DNA of 64,000 nt from Deuterostichococcus epilithicus (Eukaryota > Chlorophyta > Trebouxiophyceae > Prasiolales > Stichococcaceae): contig JAVTLE010000014.1 in assembly GCA_033439295.1 (NCBI GenBank), forward strand, positions 4,216,001 through 4,280,000, in the 5' to 3' direction. The translations under genes were made by a program, and so were the position numbers. Position 1 is the first letter of the stretch; the number at the start of each line of letters is the position of its first letter. Shown piece after piece: positions 7,049 through 64,000 of this stretch. The notes beneath the pieces were generated by a model. The model made no database searches. It was not told the DNA's origin and was given only the letters and a program-made list of their open reading frames with translations.

Positions 7049-9365
7049 GCTGTGCCAAAGGTGCACACGGACCCTGAACCGCTGCAAGCGATCAATGCAG
7101 ATACCGGCCGGTACAAGTGAGATCGCGTACTCAACAGAACATGTTCATGCGCCCATTGCAAGTTGGCTTGCGAAGAGCTGGACGGCAGTCTGAGCGGACG
7201 CGGCCCTGTGTTGTATTATGCAGGTTGGCGGTGCGGTATCATTTAGACGAGGCGCGTGCACTCACGAGCTACCAGGTGCAAACTTCATGTAAGGGCCGTT
7301 CGTGCTGCAGCTCGCTGATTCGGGGCCACCGGCCAAAGTACCTTTAGATCTCCCCGCCATCTCAACGCACGTGCTCAATATGTGCATTTTCCTAAACCCC
7401 TTTTTGACTTTATGCACAATTGCTCAGTCGGAGCTTCTGCAGTGTCACCGCTGGCCCAGCACTTTCGACGCGAGAGGCGTGGAGCACACGTTTTTTTGAC
7501 AACAGGCTGCTGGCGGTGGCGGCTGATTGCACCGCGTGACGCCAACTGCGTCACCCCAAGTGAAGTGACGGTGAAGAGCTGGGCACACGGCCTGCGGGCA
7601 TCAGAGGACGACGCCAGAGCCGCCGTGCCCGGTGCCTGTGCTCAACCGACGAGCAACACTCGCCTGCGCTGGGGGACCTTCCTGGACCGGGCCCTGCTGC
7701 CAGGCGGAAGCGCGGCAACAACATGAACTCTGGCCGCTACAGCGATTTGGGTCTTGCGCCGGACAACGCGGTGAGTCGACTTTCCGTCTCTGATCCCTGG
7801 ACTCTGCGCGGCGTGGCCGCTCCTAGCCCGCGGCCTGGCGTGGCATCCACAGCGAATTCCGGGTTCCACGGACCCACTCGCCAGCCACACAGCGTACGGC
7901 CTGTGCCTCGTTGCTTGCTTGCCGCCCGCCCACCACGTCCGTCCCCATCGAAAGACGATTGCTCTCGGATCCATTCTGGCAGCCGCGCCTGCCAGACGGG
8001 CCGCCCGCCTCGCCAGGGGCTGTTGTGCTGCGTGTGGGTCGCTAAAGGGCAAACTGCCTAATGGCAGCCGGGCACCGCGTGCGGTGCAGGCAGCCGTGCT
8101 GCCGCTGCCGCATCGAACACTCACCATCCTGCTCTGTGCCCGCAGCTGGCGGCCATCCTGCGCTTCAGGAGCCCCTTCGATGACATGGTAGCGGCCCTGC
8201 GTGTCCCGCGGAAGCCTCGCACAGGTTCGACCGGCTCGCCGCCCACCGCCTGTCTGCTGAGCATATGCCCATCTGCTACGCGCGGCATCGGGCGCTCAAA
8301 TTCCGCCACCTGTTTTATCGCTGTTGCTCCCAAGCTGAGCTGGAGACGCTGTGTTGTCACCGAGGCAGATACGGCGGCTCCCTGTGTGCGTGGGACTGAC
8401 TGCTGACCGGCTGGCCTGTGCCTGCAGCCCTGCGCAAGCGGCCCGGTGATGCGTGGCACGAGGCCGCCAAGCGCGCAGCTGCGGTGCGTTGCCATACCCA
8501 CCTTCGGCTGCACCTTCTCGTACTCGTCTCAGAATGACTCGGCAATCAGTGCCACCCTGATCAAGCACCCTAAAGTGGACCAGATGCTTGGACCACGCAA
8601 GTAGAGTCGCCATGCCGGCCGGTGCAGCCGCCCGAGCCGTCTGACGAAGCATCAACGCCCACTTTTGAGGCACGTGCGATGGCGAGGGGCAATCACCAGT
8701 GCTGCGAGTTGAGCGAGCTGTCGCGGCCAGGCCGCCTGGTGCTTGACAACTTTCATTGCAAGTCAGATGCTTGCCTCGCGCACGACTGGTGCCATCTCGC
8801 GTTCTAGGGTGTCAGCGCCAATCGAGTCGGCTTGCCTCAGAACCTCGCACGTATGGCCAGGTGCTGCGTGCCTTGCACCGACCAGCCTGCAGCTCGGCCT
8901 CTGAATGGCTCTCATCTCGACACCCATTGCCCTAGGGCAGGCTTGCAGCGTGTTTGCGGTCGCATTGGCCGGCTGTTTGAGCGCCTGATGACGTCACGTG
9001 GGTGCCTTGCCCGCGGCGTGCAGTGCCGCGTCAGCCTGTATATGACCCACTCAAGCGCACGCATGAAGCAAACGCTGGCCGATCCCGCGTCTTGCGAGCC
9101 CGCCGGGCGGGCGCTTGCAGCTTTGGCCACCATTCTGTACTGGCTGGAGGTCAGTTCTTGTCTGACACAATTTCCAGATAGTTACTAAGGTCAAAAAAAA
9201 TCATATTCATTTGTCAAGCTGCAGCAGGAAACCCTCCTTCCGGGCTGACATGCCTCATAGGCCAGTTCACGGAGTACTGTCGGGCGCCAGGTGAATTGGA
9301 GCAGGTGGAAGGAAAAGCACTCCAATGCTCACGTGCAACCCAACGCTTTGCTGTATGCCCTGCAG
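7049..9365. other. Region probably holding 5' exons of the TIC-like gene, not resolved
   Basis: Candidate exons lie on the plus strand. One carries ARRKRGNN followed by MNSGRYSDLGLAPDNA and ends at a GTGAGT donor at 7771. Another begins after a CCCGCAG near 8146 and reads LAAILRFRSPFDDM. A third, near 8430-8483, reads RKRPGDAWHEAAKRAAA. A possible 30-base exon lies at 9261-9290, immediately upstream of the secure exon at 9366. Their phases could not all be reconciled, so I do not assert a joined model. They could also belong to a separate short gene. Confidence 0.3.
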
Positions 9366-10350
9366 GAGGAGGTCAGCCAGGAGCACGAGGTGGCCGAGGC
9401 GCTGTTCGACCTGGCCAACATGTTCGCGGCAGCGGAGCCCGTGCTGGAGGCCGAGGAGGCCGCGACCTCGTCGCCGCCGGCGCCCCGCCATGACGGCGGG
9501 CACCGCGCCAAGCGTGCCCGCGGCGCCAAGGGCAGCGCCACGGCCGTGCAGCCGCAGGCGCAGCCCGCGCGGCGACGGGCTTCGGGCACGGCGGCTCCGG
9601 CCACGCCGCCGCCGCCGCCGCCGCCGCCGCGGGCCGAGCTTCCAGGAGGCCCTCGCGCGGCAGCCGCCGGGCGGCGACGCCGCGGGCGCGCACGACTNCG
9701 GCCTCGTCGCGGCGCAGCTGGCGGCGGGGCGCGGCGGCGACTGGGAACGCCGCCCTGGAGCGGCCAATGGCCTCGGCGGCCTGCCGCACGGCAGCAACGG
9801 CGGCCTGGCCAACGGCGGCGCCGGATTTTCGGCGCCCAACGGCCTGCTGCCGGGACTGGCGGGCTTCTACCAGCCGGGTGCGCTGCCGGGGGGCCTCGGC
9901 GCCGCCGGTGCGTGGGCCGCTGCCCCCACCGGTGACCGCGCAGGCGCCGATGGCCAGCTGCCGGCAGGCTTTGGCGGCGGCGGCGGCGGCGTGGACCACC
10001 GCTTCCCGCGCTGTGCCAGCCACGTGTACATCGCGCACTTCATCGAGTACCAGTCCAAGCTCGAGCGTCAGCGGCAGGTGCGTGCTCCTGTGTGCCTTGA
10101 GTGCCGTCTGCCTGCCTGTACATGCATGCCATCGGCATGTATGATCCTCCAAAGCTCATATGGCTTGGCTACGGCGTTCTGAGGAGAAGTCCTAAAGGAA
10201 TTGGGCCGTGCTGAGGATCCTACCTCGCTGTGAACGCAGGCGGCAGGCATGCAGCCAGTCAGCGCCAAGCATGAAGGCTTCTTCCGGCCTGGCGCCGCGC
10301 CGCCATCGGGGTTCCCTGGCCCGCAGCAGAACGGCAGCGTCCAGCATCAA

Positions 10351-54708: not shown

Positions 54709-54743
54709 CAGCAGCAGCAGCAGCGGCAGCAGCAGCAGCAGCT

Positions 54744-54790
<47 letters not shown>
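54709..54790 (+). repeat. CAG microsatellite upstream of the cyclase gene
   Basis: A run of CAG triplets with single CGG and CTG interruptions and one long pure tract of about 16 units. It lies about 320 bases upstream of the cyclase start codon, outside any supported coding exon, so it is probably in the promoter or leader rather than encoding a homopolymer. Confidence 0.85.
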
Positions 54791-54791
<1 letters not shown>

Positions 54792-55104
54792 GCTGCGACA
54801 GAGCTTGCGAGCAACAGCGGCACGGCACACAGGCTGCTGCGGTCGCGGCGGCGCAGAGCAGGAGGAAAGCATAGTCGAAGCCCCGGCGGCTGCGTCGTCA
54901 GCTGCACATCGGCTCTGCCAAGGTCGCACACTTGGCTGAGCGGTGGCCACGCCGCAGCGGCGCACAGGTGGTGACGCCTCGGCAGTGGGCGCCATCCATG
55001 CCGCGTTGGGCTGGAGGTGAACACAGCGTCACGGAAGGGCAGTCGCCTCAAGCATGCAGCGCAGCCAGGCCCCAGGGTTATTGAACGTTTGAGAAACGCT
55101 GGCC
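54791..55104 (+). promoter_or_regulatory. 5' flank of the receptor cyclase gene
   Basis: 314 bases from the CAG tract to the start codon at 55105. Presumed promoter and 5' leader. No defined element is recognised. Confidence 0.35.
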
Positions 55105-58100
55105 ATGCCTGCAGCAGATCCTAGCGGCAGTTGGCACGGACACAGACCTCATGCAGCAAAGCGGCAGACAGCTGCATCGGCGGCGCCCAGCAGCCGCCGT
55201 CACCTGCAGTCAGGAGGCAGGCGCGCGACAGCGCCGGCGACGCTGCTACTGGCTGCGGCGCTCCTTGCCGCCATGCTTCCCGCCGCACGCGCGGTGACCT
55301 CGTCCGGCGACAAGGCGGCGCTGCTGGCCTTTGCAGATGCCATCACGCAGGTGAGTCAGGGTCGAGAACAGGGCCGCACGCAAGCCCTAGAGGTGCGCGG
55401 CAGGCGCAGCCTGCTGTTGCAGGGTCTGGTCTGGCAATGGTGACACCGCACGGCACACTCAAACCTCATTGGCAGCCATCTCGTGCTGCTGCACTTTTTA
55501 GCGTTGGCAAGCGAGGCTGCACAAAGTCTCACATTACCACTGTCACAAACCCCTCCTAGGATGTCACGCGCGCACGGGAGCTTCCAGTGCTTGTGGCGCA
55601 CCTGTCGCCACATCTATCAATGGTCGTATTTCCATGAGTACTCCTAACATCGCCTGTCAAGTGCCGAACTTCCTAGCACGTACCTGCCGCCATGCAGGAC
55701 GAGGGCCTGCTGGCGACATGGAACACATCGACCGACCCCTGCGACGACGGCTGGCGCGGCGTCGTCTGCAACTGCACGGCGACGCCCAGGGCGTTCAACG
55801 ACTGCACCCAGGCGCCCGCCGGCCAGCCATTGCGCGTCCTGCAGGTGGGGGAAGAACTGTCCAGGACTGCACGGGTTCACGGCTGCACCCTCAGGCCACC
55901 AGGTGCCACCAGGACAGCTCGAGCCCCGCCCTGGTGAGGGAGGGTCCATGCGTGTCCAGTGCAGGCTCCACACCGAATGTCAGCAGAGGTGGGTCAGAAG
56001 GGGTGCCGGAGAGCGGCCCTTGGCCGCCAGCGCATGCCCCTGCTGGTGCCTTGTCACTCGCAATTCATGTGTTCCTTCAACTCATGTCATGCCTTCTCCT
56101 CGGCAGCTCGACTTCCGGCTGCCGGACGTCAGCACGGCGGCGCAGCTGGAGGGTCGCATCCCGACGCAGATGCGCACGCTGACGGCGCTGCGGCGCCTGG
56201 CGCTGCCGCGGCACAACCTGCTGGTTCGTTGCTTGAGCTGGCTGACGCGCCCTGTATGCGCCCGACTGCCTGCCTTTGCTGCTGGACAACCGCTGGTTGC
56301 GGGCGTTTGATGCACACCGCCACCCGTGGCCCACCTGCATCAGAGCCTGTCTCCTGCATTTGCAAACTTGGCAGCCAGGCCCAGGAACTGGCTGCGTGCT
56401 GTCGCCGACAGGTTTCTGAGTGTCTGTTTCGGGCTCGCGGCTTGGCAGCGTCCTGGCTGCATCCAGGGGGCTCTGTGCGTTGCAGCTCAACTGCTACTAC
56501 CTTATCACGCAGTAACACTTAGCCCCCCACACTGCATGCTGCTGTGTCCCCGTGGGCACTGCACAACGTGCAGCTGCAATGGGCAGACTGGATGGCAGCA
56601 ACCAGGCAGCTCAAACTTGCTGCGCCTCTCCGGCCGCAGGGCACGCTGCCGGCGCAGCTGTCCGCGCTGGCGGCCCTGGAGCAGGTGGAGCTGCAGGACA
56701 ACCGGCTGACCGGGCGGCTGCCGACGTGGGCGGGCGCGCTGCCACAGGGCGAGGTGGTGCGGCTGGACGACAACAACTTCGTGGGGCCCATCCCCTCGGC
56801 CTGGTGCCCCACCAATGGCACGGCGCCAAGCTACAGCATGGTCCTCACCGGCAACACGGGTGCGGAAAAAAACACTTCAGGGGTCAAGGTACTGAAGGGC
56901 CCTCCTTTGCACGCTGGCACGTTCTGGCACCTGGTCCTGGGCGCCGTGCCGTGCTTCGTGGTGCTGCACAACAGTGCGGGTGCGGCACTTTCAGAGCCTG
57001 GCACGATCCCAGCTCCTTAAGATGCTGCCTCAGAGCTCTTGTGTGCCGAGTTTGGAAAGTAATGAAAATCACGAAGCAATAAGGTGTTTTCCGGCTTGCA
57101 GTGGCCAGGTGCTCTGTCTGTCCAGCCGTCCGGTTGCTTGATGGCCTTTGGGCAAGTTGCATGCCGCAGGTCATACTGGACTGAGACGCTCGCGCATCCC
57201 ATCCACCCTGCAGTCCACACCCATCATGCAGCCTGTTGCTGGTCCTCCAGTGAATGACACTCAGCTGGTGCCACCAAGAGCCCACCTCACGCGCAATCTG
57301 TGTGGAGATCGAGGTCAGCAACCTCGGCCAGAGCAGCAGTTGACAGTGGTGCATGCGGATTGGGAGCCACATGCAGCCCTCGTGTTTCCATCCTCGACAC
57401 GCCAACCACCGCTGCACCCGCAGGGCTGTGCGACACGGTGCCGCGGTGCATGGAGCCGCGCCTGTCGTCGGTGGCGGGCACCGGCCTCATCTCCCTGGAC
57501 AACAGCTTCGGCTCCACCGGGCTGCTGTGCGCCTTCAACACCTCGGTGTGCAGTGAGGCCGACGGCTGTGGGTGAGGCGCCTTCCTGATGCGGCTTCTTG
57601 TGTCTCTTAGGGTTGAGGGTGTGCCTCCAGTGTGGTTCCGACGACGCATGCATGCAGTGCTGCTGCACAGCAGGAGTCGCCCAGGGGCCGCTCGCGCGGT
57701 GAATGTGGCTGCGTCCCAGGCTCACCTCGTTTTCAACAGCCAGCAAGGCCCGGGAAGCTGCGCTGCAGAATGCTCTGCAGATCACGCCTGTGCCTGAGGC
57801 GACGTGCTGAGCTGTGGCGCGGCTGCACCTGGCTACTTCGCCTGGCTTGGACAGCTGGCTATCCCCAGCCCTATCGCCAAGCATCGCTTGGGGCTGGGCG
57901 GCGGTGTGCTGCCTCGAGTCGCATCCCAAGGCGGACCTGATGCCCCCGCTCGACCCTCTCGTGTGCCTTGCCACGCAGGATCATCATCAACGAGTGGAAC
58001 ACCAACCTGACCAACATCTTCTTCGCCTTCACGCCATTTGGCGTCGGCGACGCTGACGCGCGCACCGACGTCGGCGTCAACTACTTTTGGGGCCTCGGCA

Positions 58101-61100
58101 CCGTGAAAGGCGATGACAACGTGCTGACGCTGAACGTGCGGCCCTGTGACGCATCCTCTTCACAGCCGCTGGGGCTTGCATGCACCGGATTGCATGAGCT
58201 AAGGCCCTGCTGAGTGGCGTGCGGGCGTGGAGAGCTCGACTCGGCGGCGGTGGCAGCGGTTGTGCCCCCTGATTCTGCTCGTCTTGCGAGCCTGGTCCGC
58301 ATCTCGGAAGCTCTGGCCTCGCCTTCGGTCCCACTGCACCACTTGCAAGGGAGACCAACTGCGCCAGGCAATGGTCTCGCGAGACGCTCTGAATAGGTCA
58401 TGTGGCTCTTCGCCCGCAGCCGGTGGACAAATCGCAGAACTTCACGGGCAACATCACGCTGGACGGCCGGAACTCCACCAGGCTGCTGTATGCGGTGTCG
58501 CAAGACCTGCAAGGCGTCGCCTTCCTCAATGGCCAGGCAAGACAAACACACCGCAAAGAATTTAGTCCCCTTTGGAATCCGCCAAGCGGTTGTATGCGGT
58601 GACGCAAGATTTGCAAGGCATCGCCTCGGCAGCCAGACAAGCCAATACCACCCGAGGACTACATGTCGCTTAAATAGTGCAGCGCAACTGGGGACAACGC
58701 CATCAGGTACAGGGTCTGGTAGAAACGTCGGGTAGAGGCTGCTGGCTGCTGGCAAGAGGGCACATACCTACAGGCAGCAGCCTGCGACTGTGCGCCGCCA
58801 TGGTTGCCGAGCTACCAGCAACGGCGCCTGCGTGCGCACCGCCGCCGCACCAAGCTGATGCTGCGGCGCCTGTTATGTCTTCGTCTTGCTGCTCCTCCAG
58901 GATTGCTGATTTGTGATGATGCTTCCACCTGTTCCTTTGAACCCTGCGCATCACCCCCCTGGCTGCAGGAGTACTGGCCTGTGGTGACGGCGTCCAGCCA
59001 AATCGACCCGGCAATCATCACCAATGTCACCGGGCCCTTCACCAAGGCGCGCCAAAACTGCTGCCTGAACCTCTGGACTGGCCTTCTCTAGCTTGCCCTC
59101 CAACGGTGCCCTCCTGCTCGACGCCGGTGTGTCTGACACACTGTGCTGGCATGATTGCCATCAAACGGAGGCCATGCACACACACGCGTTTCTGAGGGAA
59201 GGCGGGAGGGGTGGCACAGCGGTCAACACCTTGCTTCGTGTCCTGCCTGCAGCGGAATCTTGAGGTCTTCCAATACCGCATAACATGAGTCTCGGATACC
59301 AAGACTGAGTGTTGAAAGACCTGGCGCTGTGCTACAGACCGACACAAATCCGCCATTCCTGCCGCGCACCGGTGCCATCGACAACACGGCGGACTACACC
59401 GTCGCGCAGACGCAGTCGGAAACCGACACATTCGGGTGCGCGCACAGCCTGATGCTACAGCAGGATCCAGGTCGGAAACACCAACCACATGAGTGTGAAC
59501 CTAGACACGAGTCTGCACTTGGCTTCGGGTCTTTGCAGCGGCAACTGAGTTGCGGACAGTCCGCCGCAGCCTTAAGCCTCAACTAGGATCCCACTGTTGC
59601 TATAAATGCACTTTTACTCCACGATCGCCGCAGCGCCAGATCGCCCAAAGTAACATCCAGATCGCTGCGCATGCACTGCAGCACATCAAACAAACCGATC
59701 GGCGTTGAACTGCCTACAAACCCCTGTGAACTGTCCTGGGCTGCAGGGTGTCCTGGGACGACTGGGAGGACCCAGAAAGCGGCGTTGCCAGCTATGCTTA
59801 CCAGATCCTGCAGGTCACAGACCCATCTGGCCGTGGCATCGCCACCACTTTCAGCAACGCCAGCGCCATGGTGCTTTGCCGGCCACCCCCTTGCTTTGTG
59901 GAAATTTGCAGCATTTCGCAGATTCTTCCTCGTGCTGCTGCGGCTTTGCGGGCACTGGCTTGCAGGGCTTGTGAGTAAGGTGGGTCGCACCGGCCCGCTC
60001 TCAAGGGCCGAGCCTCTTGGGGCTGCTGCCGCACCATCGGCATGCACGGGGGTTGCCACCGCAGCCGCCACTCTGCTCAGGGATGGGGCCGAGCGAAACT
60101 GCCCCTGAGGCTTGTGCATGCCCACTGCGGGGGTTCCCCCACAGCTGCCTCGGTCTGTGTGCAGCAGCACATCTCATCCTTCCCAAACCCAAGGTCTGAC
60201 CTGCAAACACACCGCTCAGGTCAATGTGGGCATGAACACATCTGCGACGGCGACCGGCCTGGACCTGCAGCCTGGCGAGCGGTACATCAATCGCGTGACC
60301 GCGTACAACAACGCCGGCCTGTCTGCCTTTGCAGACTCGCCAGCGCTGGTGCATTCTTCCATCGGTCTTCTGTCCCCGTCATTTCCCTTCCATTGATCTC
60401 CAGTGTCTGCCGCGCGCATTTCGTCACTTGCTGCAGGGTTTGCAGTGCTCCCACAGCAACAACACAACACTGCGCACTGCCACGTCGCCGCGGTGCAGCT
60501 CGCCCTGCTTTGCATTGGTCTTCGGCATGGTCGCAGTGGCCTCCTTGCTCAGGCATCGCTGCCATTCTCCTGCAGCTCATCACAAACGACAGCAGTGGGG
60601 TGACCACCTCGAGTGCCGCCATCATTGCGGCGGCGTGCATCGGCGTGTGCTCCATTGTCGTGGCGCTCATCACCGTCTACATCGTCCGCATGCGGTAAGA
60701 GTAGCAGAATGTCAAAGGGCATGCATTCGGGGACGCGGCACCGCCTCCTGATGCATGCTTTGGCGGTCATATGCAAACGGTCAATGCCGGAGGCGCGCCG
60801 GCGCGCAGATGACCTGGGCATGTGCCTCACAGTACGCGTCCCTGTCGAAGCTGCGCCGTGCACTTGAGCCACGACGGCTGCAACCCATCCAGCCATACGA
60901 CCCCTGGGCTATAGGGCCAGGGTAACTTACAACACCCACAAAGCAGCTCCTGCATGCAGGCTGCCCCGACATCTGGCACGCGCACCTTGCCAGATGTGTG
61001 CTCCTTGTGTAACCCAGACTCAATAAGCTTCACCTACAATACCTGTGCCTCAGGTACAATGCGCGGCGGGCTTCGCGGCGGGAGCAGCGCCGCCAGATGA

Positions 61101-64000
61101 AGGAGCTCAAGGGGCTCATGTACGGCCTGGTCTCCTCCGGCGGCGACCCGCTGCAGAAGCGCATGGACGAGATCCGCAACAGCCGGCAGCTGTGCTTCGT
61201 TATGACCGACCTGGAGGCGTCCACGGCGCAGGCCTCGGCGGACGCTGACGCGTTCCTCCAGGTCCAAGACATCCACGATACGGTGCGTCGGGTTTCGACA
61301 GGTTATCGAAAGTCTGAGGGGGAACAAGCGTGTTTTTTGGGGTCTAGAAGCATACACGGCTCTGGCGCCAGCCAGCGCAACCCGGACTCCTTCCTGCAGG
61401 TTCAGGACTAGGATGCGGTGCGGCCCTCTTGTGAGAATCGCTTCCACAAGTGCTGCAGACGTGCAGCTGCTAGTCTTACAGGCATTTGATGGTGGGCAAT
61501 GGTGCCACCGCGTCGCTCCCAAGTCCAGGACATCCACGGTTCACACTTGGGTCCTGATTTCAAGTTGTAGAGTTTCCAAATTCCCAGCTGCAGTTGGTTG
61601 AAACACCTAGAGCAGAGAGAGGGGTGCGCTCAACTGTGCGCCGCTGTGAGCAGTGGCGTAGAAGTCATCTTCCGCCTCCGCCTGGCGACAGCCTGTGACC
61701 TTGTGTTTCTGCGCACACACCCCTCACGAGTGACACCTGTGGCGCGCAGGTGATGCGGGAGGGCATCGCAAAGCACGGCGGCTACGAGATCAACACGGAG
61801 GGCGATGCCTTCCAGGTCGCCTTCACCACCGTGCACCAGGCGCGCTTCCGCTCTCGTGGGAGAAATTTTATATATACAACACAACTCGGTGTAGTTGCCT
61901 TCTGCAGGCTTCCTTCAGTCAGACCTGCAAGGCTGTTCTCGCAGCGCTTGCTGCCACAAATGTCGCAGGCTGCCCATCACAGTCCCCTTCATCTGTGGAG
62001 TATGATGCTTCAGATGCATGGTGGCTGTGCTGGCACTGCTTGCCGGCTCCGGCCGTGCTTGCCCACTGCAGAAGCACTGCTGGCTGCTGGGGTCAAAGAC
62101 AAGCTGCACGCCCTGCTCACCACACACCCAGCCTGTGGTTGCCATCGATCGGTGTGCCTCGCAGTGTGGGGTTTTCAATAAGCAGTCGCTGCTCGGCGCA
62201 GGCAGTGCTGTTCTGCCTGGAGACGCAGTACCGGCTGCTGGAGTCGGCGTGGCCGCGCGAGGTGCTCAAGCTGCCCAGCTGCAAGGAGGTGGTCGCGGCG
62301 GACGGCTCGCTGCTGTTCCGCGGGCCCCGAGTGCGCATGGGAATCCACTGGGCCGGGGAGGGCACCGTGGCCCACAGGTGCGGACTTGTGTCCCCGTCTG
62401 CGAGGCGGTTGTGTGTCTTGTTGAGAGGCAGGAATCTGAAAGGCAGGACGTCAGAAGGGGGACACCGCTAGCGCCGTTTGGCCGGCAGCGGCGCTGCCGC
62501 TGCACAGCAATGCGTCATTCGTCTGTCCTGGCACCTACAGGGTGCAGCCGGGCAACCTTTCGCGCTGGTGACGCAGCCCAAAGTCAATGGACCCAGTTCC
62601 TGGGCTGCTTGCTCGAGAGGCACCTGAATTGCGTTCAGCACCATGTTGCCGCTGCGCTGCTGTCCACCCGATATCTTGTCCGACACCTCCTGACACCGCC
62701 CACGCAGGCTGCACCTGCTGACGAAGCACCGGGTGTTCTCGGGGCCGGGCTTCCTGGTGGCGCAGGAGATCGGGGATGCGGCGCACGGCGGCCAGGTGGT
62801 GCTATCCCACGACGCCTGGCTGGAGCTGCGCAACTGCATGGACCAGGCAAGGGCCTTTTCCCTGCCGCAACCCCCTTCTCCTCCCGGACAGCGGAGCAGC
62901 TGTGCCGCTCAGCTGCGCCACCCTCCTGTTCTCTCGGTGTTGCTCGTGCCGGCGAGCTGCGGCGGCACTCTGCCGCACTCTTGTGAGTTTCCCTTTGCGC
63001 CCTCGTCGCTGCCACCCGCCAGCCTGCAGGCAGCGCACTGGCGGCCGGCTGCTTTCAACCGGTCCTGACCCTGCGACCGGTCCTGCGGCCGACGCCATGC
63101 AAGCCAGTCTGATCGGAGCCCCCGACAGGTCTTCTGGCTGCCGCCCTGCCGGTGGCCGCTCTGCATGGACCTCCGAATGCTGAATTGCTGGTAGGAATGT
63201 TTCTTTTTGGATGGACCAAAAGCCGGTGAAAGCAACGCTGCCGCTGCCGCAGGCGGGCTTTCCCACCGTGGAGCAGCTCGGCCTGTTCAAGGTGGACGCC
63301 TGGCCGGCACCACTGTGGCTGTACCAGGTGCGCCCGATCCAGGGTCAGGGTTCAGGATGCTCGTGCACCGTCTCCGGCGGGGCCTGCCCAGCCGCTGCAG
63401 CACAGCAAGCCGCTTGTGCACGTGCGAAGTGGCGCACGAGAGCGGTCCCCTCCGCGTCACTGGACCCTGCGCAAGGCACCTGCTTTCGCGGCGCGATCTG
63501 AGCTTGCAAGTCAAGCGGGGCCTGATCGTCTGAACACCTCGTGCGTCACTCATCATCAGGTTCAGCATCACATGAGCCCCTCCCCGGACTTGCGCGCAGG
63601 TGACGCACCTGCTGGGCAAGCCGCTGCTGCGGGTGTTCGGCCCCATGCGGCGCATCGTGCAGATCGAGCCGGGGTGGGGCCTCAACATTGTGCCGCCGCC
63701 CGTGCCGCGCTCGCCGCAGGTGCAAAGGGTTTAGGGGTCCAGGTTTGAACCGCTGTCCTGCTGCGCTTGTGTGGCTCGTGGCAGGCCGTTCTCGCCCCCA
63801 AGACTACGTCAAGGGACAGAGAGTGCCAGTTGAGCAGCCGAGCAGGGGAATGCACGCACTGCCGCTTGCATATGGTGAGCCTGAACCCCTGCTGCAGGGC
63901 GACTGGACGTCAGTCTCGCAGTGATCCATCGCTGAGTTGATGTGGCCAAGCGCTGTGTTTACATATCGCGGTTCAGGGCCCTCTCACGTTCGTGGCGGTG
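55105..64000 (+). CDS. LRR-FN3-TM receptor with class III nucleotide cyclase domain(s), runs off the right edge
   Basis: A plasma-membrane receptor expected to make cAMP or cGMP. Main exons: 55105-55350, 55698-55844, 56107-56223, 56640-56859, 57424-57571, 57979-58135, 58420-58536, 58969-59046, 59338-59435, 59747 to about 59813, 60220-60348, 60576-60694, 61054-61282, 61750-61839, 62202-62377, 62708-62846, 63253-63327, 63600-63719, and 63977 onward. Order: signal peptide; plant-type LRR N-cap with WNTSTDPCDDGWRGVVCNC; leucine-rich repeats (LEQVELQDNRLTGRLP); a Cys/Asn-rich region; an FN3-like unit (TGLDLQPGERYINRVTAYNN); one membrane helix (IIAAACIGVCSIVVALITVY); a basic helix; then the cyclase domain. 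Metal-binding Asp appears in CFVMTDLEAST and in TEGDAF, followed by VRMGIHWAGEG and HGGQVVLS. The canonical Lys is Asn (INTEGD) and the N-x3-R pair is absent (GFLVAQEIGD). Exon ends around the FN3 unit are uncertain. Four introns are GC-AG. Confidence 0.85.
58573..58645 (+). repeat. Intronic partial copy of the preceding cyclase exon
   Basis: Within the intron after 58536, a stretch reading TTGTATGCGGTGACGCAAGA and onward closely repeats exon bases at about 58485-58535 (CTGTATGCGGTGTCGCAAGA and onward), including the GCAAGGC-TCGCCT segment and the following AGCCAGACAAG/GGCCAGGCAAGAC. Several substitutions and a short gap break its frame. It is a local duplication of exon sequence, not a usable exon. 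Confidence 0.6.

What the first reader, a model, noticed from the sequence alone, without database searches (positions are those of the whole stretch)
61054..64000. Receptor cyclase with a possible split active site: metal half present, substrate half missing, second domain starting at the window edge
Seen: the cyclase domain keeps both metal-binding Asp positions (MTDLEAST, TEGDAF). The position usually Lys just before T-x-G-D is Asn, and where class III enzymes have V-N-x-A-A-R the sequence has GFLVAQEIGD, lacking both Asn and Arg. The exon at 63600-63719 ends in phase 0. An acceptor at 63976 then opens GPLTFVAV, which aligns with the first strand of a cyclase domain (usual T-L-x-F-T-D-I) but without the Asp. 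Known: in mammalian transmembrane adenylyl cyclases, C1 supplies the metal Asps and C2 supplies Lys, Asp, Asn and Arg. Inference: this protein may have evolved the same division of labour on a single-pass plant-like LRR receptor.
Basis: partly seen in the sequence, partly recalled or inferred. Interest (0 to 1): 0.8.

Follow-up and report, generated by a model that had tools for sequence, protein, structure and literature searches.

The report
Algal receptor with split cyclase site
A gene in what looks like a green alga encodes a cell-surface receptor with three linked cyclase domains inside the cell, and the first and third appear each to hold one half of a single cAMP-making active site, an arrangement like that of animal adenylyl cyclases but on a plant-type receptor.

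Summary
Reading the contig on past 64000, I modelled a 1393-residue receptor (28 exons, 55105-70398): signal peptide, plant-type LRRNT_2 cap, a few LRRs, FN3-like stretch, one TM helix, then THREE class III cyclase-like domains (D1, D2, D3). D1 has three of three metal/triphosphate-side residues and none of five substrate-side residues. D2, which starts at the window edge, is degenerate on both sides. D3 has five of five substrate-side residues (Lys, Asp, Asn, Arg, Lys) and neither metal Asp. Together D1 and D3 make one full site. In 57 prokaryotic relatives the metal Asps are invariant. The three domains look coding (GC3 0.89-0.94; introns 0.61 GC). No second copy was found in the held genome, by searches that can miss diverged copies. 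Most likely this is an LRR-receptor adenylyl cyclase working through a D1:D3 pseudo-heterodimer; a catalytically dead array is the main rival. I had no orthologue, transcript, structure prediction or assay. A 2010 survey of 101 eukaryotes found LRR plus cyclase in one gene only in fungi.

The parts
55105..60348 (+). Ectodomain, 11 exons (E1-E11): signal peptide, LRRNT_2 cap (exons 55105-55350 and 55698-55844), a few LRRs (56107-56223, 56640-56859), N-glycosylation-rich region, FN3-like stretch (59747-60348)
   Evidence: Splice-consistent model made by hand; LRRNT_2 2.6e-10 and LRR_ComC 1.6e-7 over cut-off, fn3 3.5e-4 below cut-off; 12 N-x-S/T sites before the TM helix. Start codon and the ends of exons E5-E9 are less certain.
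60576..60694 (+). Exon with the single transmembrane helix (SSAAIIAAACIGVCSIVVALITVYIV) and basic stop-transfer
   Evidence: Hydropathy maximum 2.82 (19-residue Kyte-Doolittle), only segment over 1.6 besides the signal peptide; phases fit both neighbours
61054..63719 (+). D1, cyclase domain 1 with juxtamembrane lead: exons 61054-61282, 61750-61839, 62202-62377, 62708-62846, 63253-63327, 63600-63719. Metal half present, substrate half lost
63977..64000 (+). First 24 bases of D2, cyclase-like domain 2 (degenerate on both halves). The gene continues beyond the window; in extended numbering (window position = L002 position + 59000) D2 is 63977-64150, 64559-64755, 65635-65752, 66003-66062, 66624-66809. 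D3, cyclase domain 3 (substrate half complete, metal Asps lost), has its first strand at the end of exon 66624-66809, then 67319-67512, 68388-68584, 69188-69346, 69722-69879, 70189-70398 with the stop
   Evidence: Own contig G000:C12 read on; profile D2 43 bits, D3 87 bits; D3 to 1fx4 1.1e-8; residues

Best explanation
The gene encodes a single-pass, plant-type LRR receptor whose cytoplasmic part is an adenylyl cyclase with a split site. D1 supplies the two Asps that hold the metal ions and the beta4 Arg for the triphosphate. D3 supplies the adenine-recognising Lys and Asp, the ribose-orienting Asn, the transition-state Arg and the triphosphate Lys. They pair head-to-tail, within one chain or between two chains of a dimer, giving one working ATP site and one dead pseudo-site, as C1 and C2 do in mammalian adenylyl cyclases. 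D2 keeps the fold outline but no site, and probably serves as spacer or regulatory pseudo-domain. Ligand binding outside would reorient the pair and set cAMP output. SHOWN: domain order (as a gene model), homology, the residue pattern, coding character. INFERRED: pairing, activity, ATP rather than GTP as substrate, ligand control.
For: Eight active-site positions were read off an alignment with 57 prokaryotic relatives and two solved trypanosome cyclases. Metal/triphosphate side: D1 3 of 3, D2 0 of 3, D3 1 of 3 (the Arg). Substrate side: D1 0 of 5, D2 0 of 5, D3 5 of 5. In the prokaryotes the positions are D 57/57, D 57/57, R 57/57, K 54/57, D 54/57, N 44/57, R 54/57, and K or R 43/57 (10 gaps). 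The side to which each belongs, and that Lys + Asp mark adenylate and Glu + Cys guanylate cyclases, follow the solved Chlamydomonas CYG12 enzyme (PMC2576301 section 7). The Lys follows the split (D1 Asp, D3 Lys); the Arg is not diagnostic, as D1 and D3 both keep it. Outside the site D1 keeps 30 of 45 and D3 23 of 45 conserved columns, so the losses are concentrated (D1 substrate side 0/5 vs 30/45, Fisher p 0.007; rough joint chance 1e-5). The three domains are open across splice-consistent exons with GC3 0.935, 0.888, 0.919 against intron GC 0.61. The genome has class I cyclic-nucleotide phosphodiesterase at two places and cNMP-binding domains. Holding the three domains as one clade gives a better likelihood than the free tree (+11.4, p-AU 0.741), which fits internal duplication.
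Against: No orthologue, transcript, structure model or activity datum was available. No second copy was found, so conservation of the split could not be tested. D3's branch is long (2.61) and D2's longer (3.28), which fits relaxed constraint. D3 scores below the Pfam cut-off. D3 keeps the A-side Arg, so its loss is not complete. D3 has Glu residues near both lost Asps (PREV, KEPEAA), so weak metal binding by D3 itself cannot be excluded. The statistics treat columns as independent, and the eight-position list was applied after D3 had been read. D2 between the partners has no counterpart in the two-domain pseudo-heterodimers I compared.
Confidence: 0.62

Rival explanations
1. Catalytically dead receptor: all three domains are pseudo-cyclases kept for binding, dimerisation or scaffolding, and the complementary pattern is a coincidence of decay.
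For: D2 is degenerate on both sides. D2 and D3 have long branches. D3 scores below the Pfam cut-off (19.8 vs 21.9 bits). There is no cross-species check.
Against: D1 keeps 3 of 3 metal-side and D3 5 of 5 substrate-side residues while other conserved columns are kept at only 30/45 and 23/45. Random decay does not favour the exact complement.
Confidence: 0.22
2. D1 (or D3) pairs in trans with a separate cyclase protein, e.g. the other class III cyclase gene on contig C3, rather than with its own chain.
For: Another class III cyclase gene exists (C3:872050-872175, PF00211 25.3 bits; fragments).
Against: The complement sits in the same protein. Searches with D1, D3 and D2 gave no other convincing relative in the genome, though they can miss diverged copies.
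Confidence: 0.06
3. Gene-model or assembly artefact: two genes, missed alternative exons carrying the canonical residues, or wrong exon choice.
For: No RNA evidence; splice sites chosen by hand. Partial exon duplicates lie in introns. 5 of 27 introns use GC donors in the model.
Against: Reading phases fit through the 28 exons. A profile scan of the three + strand frames of 55000-71000 lists nine open frames, each lying over a modelled exon, and no canonical alternative; the shorter modelled exons are below its reach, so short alternatives could be missed. D2 and D3 share the exon 66624-66809, and D1 to D2 splice in phase.
Confidence: 0.1

Closest known systems
Kinetoplastid receptor adenylyl cyclases (GRESAG 4.1 / 4.3, PDB 1fx2, 1fx4)
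   Same: Best solved relatives of D1 (5.7e-12) and D3 (1.1e-8); receptor-type with a cytoplasmic class III domain (receptor type from the PDB entry names; one-TM topology recalled)
   Different: Their one domain keeps the catalytic residues of both sides (Arg for Lys at beta7-8) and so can homodimerise; here there are three domains with the site split, and an LRRNT/LRR ectodomain. In the tree D1-D3 do not group with them
Mammalian transmembrane adenylyl cyclases (C1/C2) and soluble adenylyl cyclase ADCY10
   Same: Single chain, two unlike cyclase domains, one working site and one dead site (PMC2576301 passages; PMC4506562 section 5)
   Different: Those have two domains, and the mammalian membrane enzymes have two six-helix membrane domains (PMC9552081 passages). 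Here one TM helix, an LRR ectodomain and an intervening third domain
Fungal LRR adenylyl cyclases (Cyr1 type)
   Same: LRRs and a class III cyclase in one gene. Their cyclase domain groups with Leishmania and Trypanosoma sequences (PMC2939053 section 6), the kind that D1 and D3 match best among solved structures; no fungal sequence was compared here
   Different: Fungal ones have a PP2C domain and a cyclase domain at the C-terminus; Candida Cyr1p is described as cytoplasmic (same section). Here no PP2C hit, but an extracellular plant-type LRRNT_2 cap and three cyclase domains
Plant and algal LRR receptor kinases
   Same: LRRNT_2 cap (plant use recalled), LRRs, single TM; LRR receptor kinases are reported in Chlorella variabilis NC64A (five in PMC3268121, passages; two in PMC2939053)
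   Different: Cyclase array in place of the kinase

Membership tests
Class III nucleotidyl cyclase fold | Sequence match of each domain to a class III profile | tested here: met
   Profile from 57 prokaryotic + 2 PDB relatives, none of the three domains included: D1 133, D3 87, D2 43 bits. Pfam PF00211: D1 over cut-off, D3 just below, D2 no hit
Class III cyclase, catalytically complete site | Two metal Asps and the substrate-side Lys/Asp/Asn/Arg available across a domain pair | tested here: met
   D1 + D3 jointly complete; D1+D2 and D2+D3 incomplete; no single domain complete
Class III cyclase, catalytically complete site | Formation of cAMP or cGMP | not testable with these tools
   Needs expressed protein
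C1/C2-type pseudo-heterodimer | One chain, metal residues in one domain and substrate residues in the other | tested here: met
   D1 3/3 and 0/5; D3 1/3 and 5/5
C1/C2-type pseudo-heterodimer | Physical pairing of the two domains | not testable with these tools
   Structure prediction takes only unspliced translations here, so the spliced domains were not sent
Mammalian-type membrane adenylyl cyclase | Two six-helix membrane domains alternating with C1 and C2 | tested here: not met
   One TM segment besides the signal peptide. It may work like one, but is not a member
Fungal LRR adenylyl cyclase | LRR + PP2C + C-terminal cyclase domain | tested here: not met
   Three cyclase domains; no PP2C among Pfam hits of the ectodomain and of the three cyclase domains; the short juxtamembrane and C-terminal tails were not scanned
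Plant-type LRR receptor | LRRNT_2 cap with LRRs outside, single TM | tested here: met
   LRRNT_2 2.6e-10 and LRR_ComC over cut-off; TM

The most novel reading that the evidence does not exclude
A green-alga-like lineage built, on a plant-type LRR receptor, a three-domain adenylyl cyclase that independently evolved the C1/C2 division of labour between its first and third domains. The dead middle domain would be the hinge: in a ligand-induced dimer D2 would pair with D2 while each D1 meets the D3 of the other chain, making catalysis depend on receptor dimerisation.
Probability: 0.3. Interest if true: 0.85.

Novelty: new variant of a known kind. Interest (0 to 1): 0.68.

Why it matters
It would be another route to the split-site adenylyl cyclase known from animals, mounted on a plant-type LRR receptor, so that loss of opposite halves of a site in linked domains can be compared between lineages. 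It would also give a photosynthetic eukaryote a direct receptor-to-cAMP enzyme; to my knowledge (recalled) receptor control of cAMP in green algae is little understood. It extends the LRR-plus-cyclase combination beyond the fungi. The three-domain layout makes a clear testable prediction about which two domains are active together.

Tried and rejected
Rejected: D1:D2 as the catalytic pair (D2 lacks the substrate residues). Rejected: chance open frames (phases, GC3 and profile scores). Not found: other copies of the gene. Searches with D1, D3 and D2 gave this locus and one other place, C15:725177-725434 (E 0.078 genome-wide; 3.8e-6 when the 10 kb piece alone is searched, 30% identity), whose aligned stretch shows no cyclase motif to my eye. 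This is no proof of single copy: the tool scores only its best candidates, and its PF00211 search scored one candidate, on C3, and did not ring for this gene. Of the four LRRNT_2 places in the genome one is this gene; the other three have no cyclase-profile match on the LRRNT strand in the roughly 19 kb after it, while the same scan finds nine open frames here.

Led nowhere: viral contigs (13, 8 and 9 pattern matches, no relative); plasmids (two Sinorhizobium records at about 30% identity); most paper searches. The simple alignments and misplace the first strands, so positions were taken from the larger alignment and checked against the profile alignment.

Papers: PMC2939053 section 6 whole plus passages. 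PMC2576301 section 7 whole plus passages. PMC4506562 section 5 whole plus passages. PMC8115329, PMC3268121, PMC9552081 and PMC9433096 passages only. PMC5918993: a term search that found none of the terms. The rest only as search listings. That such a receptor is not in print rests on these ten searches of an open-licence library; subscription papers are mostly missing. PMC8115329 does report two groups of green-algal adenylyl cyclase sequences, with no LRR in the passages I saw.

Rows dropped: of 59 loci 57 gave a usable domain; one of the 57 bears an archaeal title. About 54 residues of D3, an insertion near its end, were cut out before the tree and the residue table. The tree's bootstrap had not settled.

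Full report
WHERE IT LIES. The window is G000:C12:4216001-4280000 of a 46.8 Mb assembly in 21 contigs. 39 chlorophyll a/b-binding matches, counted exon by exon, together with spliced genes make it a photosynthetic eukaryote. Green alga is my inference from this, the plant-type LRRNT_2 cap, the G+C content and the gene structure.

GENE MODEL. On the + strand, 28 exons join in phase from an ATG at 55105 to a stop ending at 70398 in extended numbering, giving 1393 residues. I chose the splice sites by hand. 22 introns have GT donors and 5 have GC donors; every acceptor is AG. The protein has a signal peptide, an LRRNT_2 cap (2.6e-10), a few LRRs (LRR_ComC 1.6e-7), an FN3-like stretch (3.5e-4, below cut-off), one TM helix at residue 539 on, and D1, D2 and D3 from residues 612, 844 and 1076. 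There is no transcript evidence. The start codon and some ectodomain exon ends are the least sure parts.

THREE CYCLASE-LIKE DOMAINS. D1 matches trypanosome receptor cyclases 1fx4 (5.7e-12) and 1fx2 (1.9e-10). D3 matches the same two (1.1e-8 and 2.5e-8). D2 alone gives only 0.19. A pattern-limited scan of one genome for each of 84,980 prokaryote species gave 59 loci encoding relatives of D1. A profile from 57 of these plus the two PDB chains, with none of D1-D3 in it, scores D1 133, D3 87 and D2 43 bits. In Pfam D1 is just over the cut-off of PF00211, D3 just under, and D2 has no hit. GC3 is 0.935, 0.888 and 0.919 for D1, D2 and D3 against an intron GC of 0.61, so the three behave as coding sequence.

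THE SPLIT. Eight active-site positions (roles and sides from PMC2576301 section 7) read as follows in D1 / D2 / D3, with the count of the usual residue in the 57 prokaryotic rows. Metal Asp 1: D / G / E (57). Metal Asp 2: D / G / A (57). Beta4 Arg: R / A / R (57). Base Lys: N / N / K (54). Base Asp: V / E / D (54). Ribose Asn: L / A / N (44). Transition-state Arg: E / H / R (54). Beta7-8 Lys: D / E / K (26 K and 17 R, 10 gaps). The E and A of D3 at the metal positions depend on gap placement; Lys or Glu are alternatives, and no Asp lies in reach. D2's base position is Lys in the profile alignment. Seven positions are held by exactly one of D1 and D3 on the side expected; the eighth, the Arg, is held by both.

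IS IT MORE THAN CHANCE? Outside the site D1 keeps 30 of 45, D2 21 of 45 and D3 23 of 45 columns conserved at 75% or more. D1's loss of 5 of 5 substrate-side residues against 30 of 45 kept elsewhere gives p 0.007. D1 3/3 against 0/5 gives 0.018, and D3 metal 0/2 against substrate 5/5 gives 0.048. A rough joint probability is 1e-5. These treat columns as independent, and I fixed the eight positions after reading D3.

ORIGIN. In the free tree D1 and D2 pair (95/93), while D3 joins one prokaryotic row (L031, 81/91) on a long branch; the bootstrap had not settled. Holding the three together improves the likelihood by 11.4, p-AU 0.741. Internal duplication of one cyclase is therefore the simplest reading, not a proven one.

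GENOME CONTEXT. No second copy was found, by searches that can miss diverged copies: the PF00211 search itself did not ring for this gene. Another class III cyclase lies on C3. Class I cyclic-nucleotide phosphodiesterase lies at two places, and cNMP-binding domains are present. Four LRRNT_2 places exist; the other three show no cyclase within about 19 kb.

COMPARED WITH WHAT IS KNOWN. A survey of 101 eukaryotic genomes reported LRR and adenylate/guanylate cyclase domains in one gene only in fungi (PMC2939053 section 6); the same paper covers Chlorella NC64A. The mammalian adenylate cyclase heterodimer has one active and one non-functional site, each monomer missing residues that the other provides (PMC2576301 passages), and human soluble AC has a sole active site between C1 and C2 (PMC4506562 section 5). 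This protein appears to work like these but has another topology and a third domain, so it is filed as a new variant of class III cyclases, not as a member of either.

VERDICT. Observation confirmed, interpretation right in principle and wrong in partner. Best reading: LRR-receptor adenylyl cyclase with a D1:D3 split site (0.62). The main open risk is that the whole array is catalytically dead.

Noticed in passing
L006:4051-8577 (G000:C3:868000-877500), minus strand: A second class III cyclase gene with motifs IASHGGDVIKFAGDSLIIAF and TVFGDAINLAARL, resembling soluble adenylyl cyclase (label recalled, not tested).
   Followed up: partly
L002:9245-9308 against 9406-9469 (extended window 68245-68308 and 68406-68469): A 64-base partial copy (84% identical) of part of the D3 exon 68388-68584 lies in the intron just before it; by eye its frame is broken.
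   Followed up: no
L002:7782-7810, 7896-7924, 8004-8032 (extended window 66782 on): The end of the exon that encodes the first strand of D3 occurs three times in tandem, 114 and 108 bases apart, each running into a donor-like GT or GC; by eye none has an Asp there.
   Followed up: partly
G000:C7:1809092-1809208, C12:3749283-3749396, C10:2434879-2434953: Three other plant-type LRRNT_2 places in the genome; no cyclase-profile match in about 19 kb after them, and their cytoplasmic parts were not identified.
   Followed up: partly
introns of the gene model, window 55105-70398 (extended): Five of 27 introns in the model begin with GC instead of GT.
   Followed up: no
L015, L018, L031: Three MAG contigs titled Klebsiella pneumoniae carry class III cyclases related to D1; I doubt these titles but did not test them.
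   Followed up: no
window about 54710-54810: A long triplet run just upstream of the gene, read as poly-Gln, poly-Ser or poly-Ala by frame.
   Followed up: no
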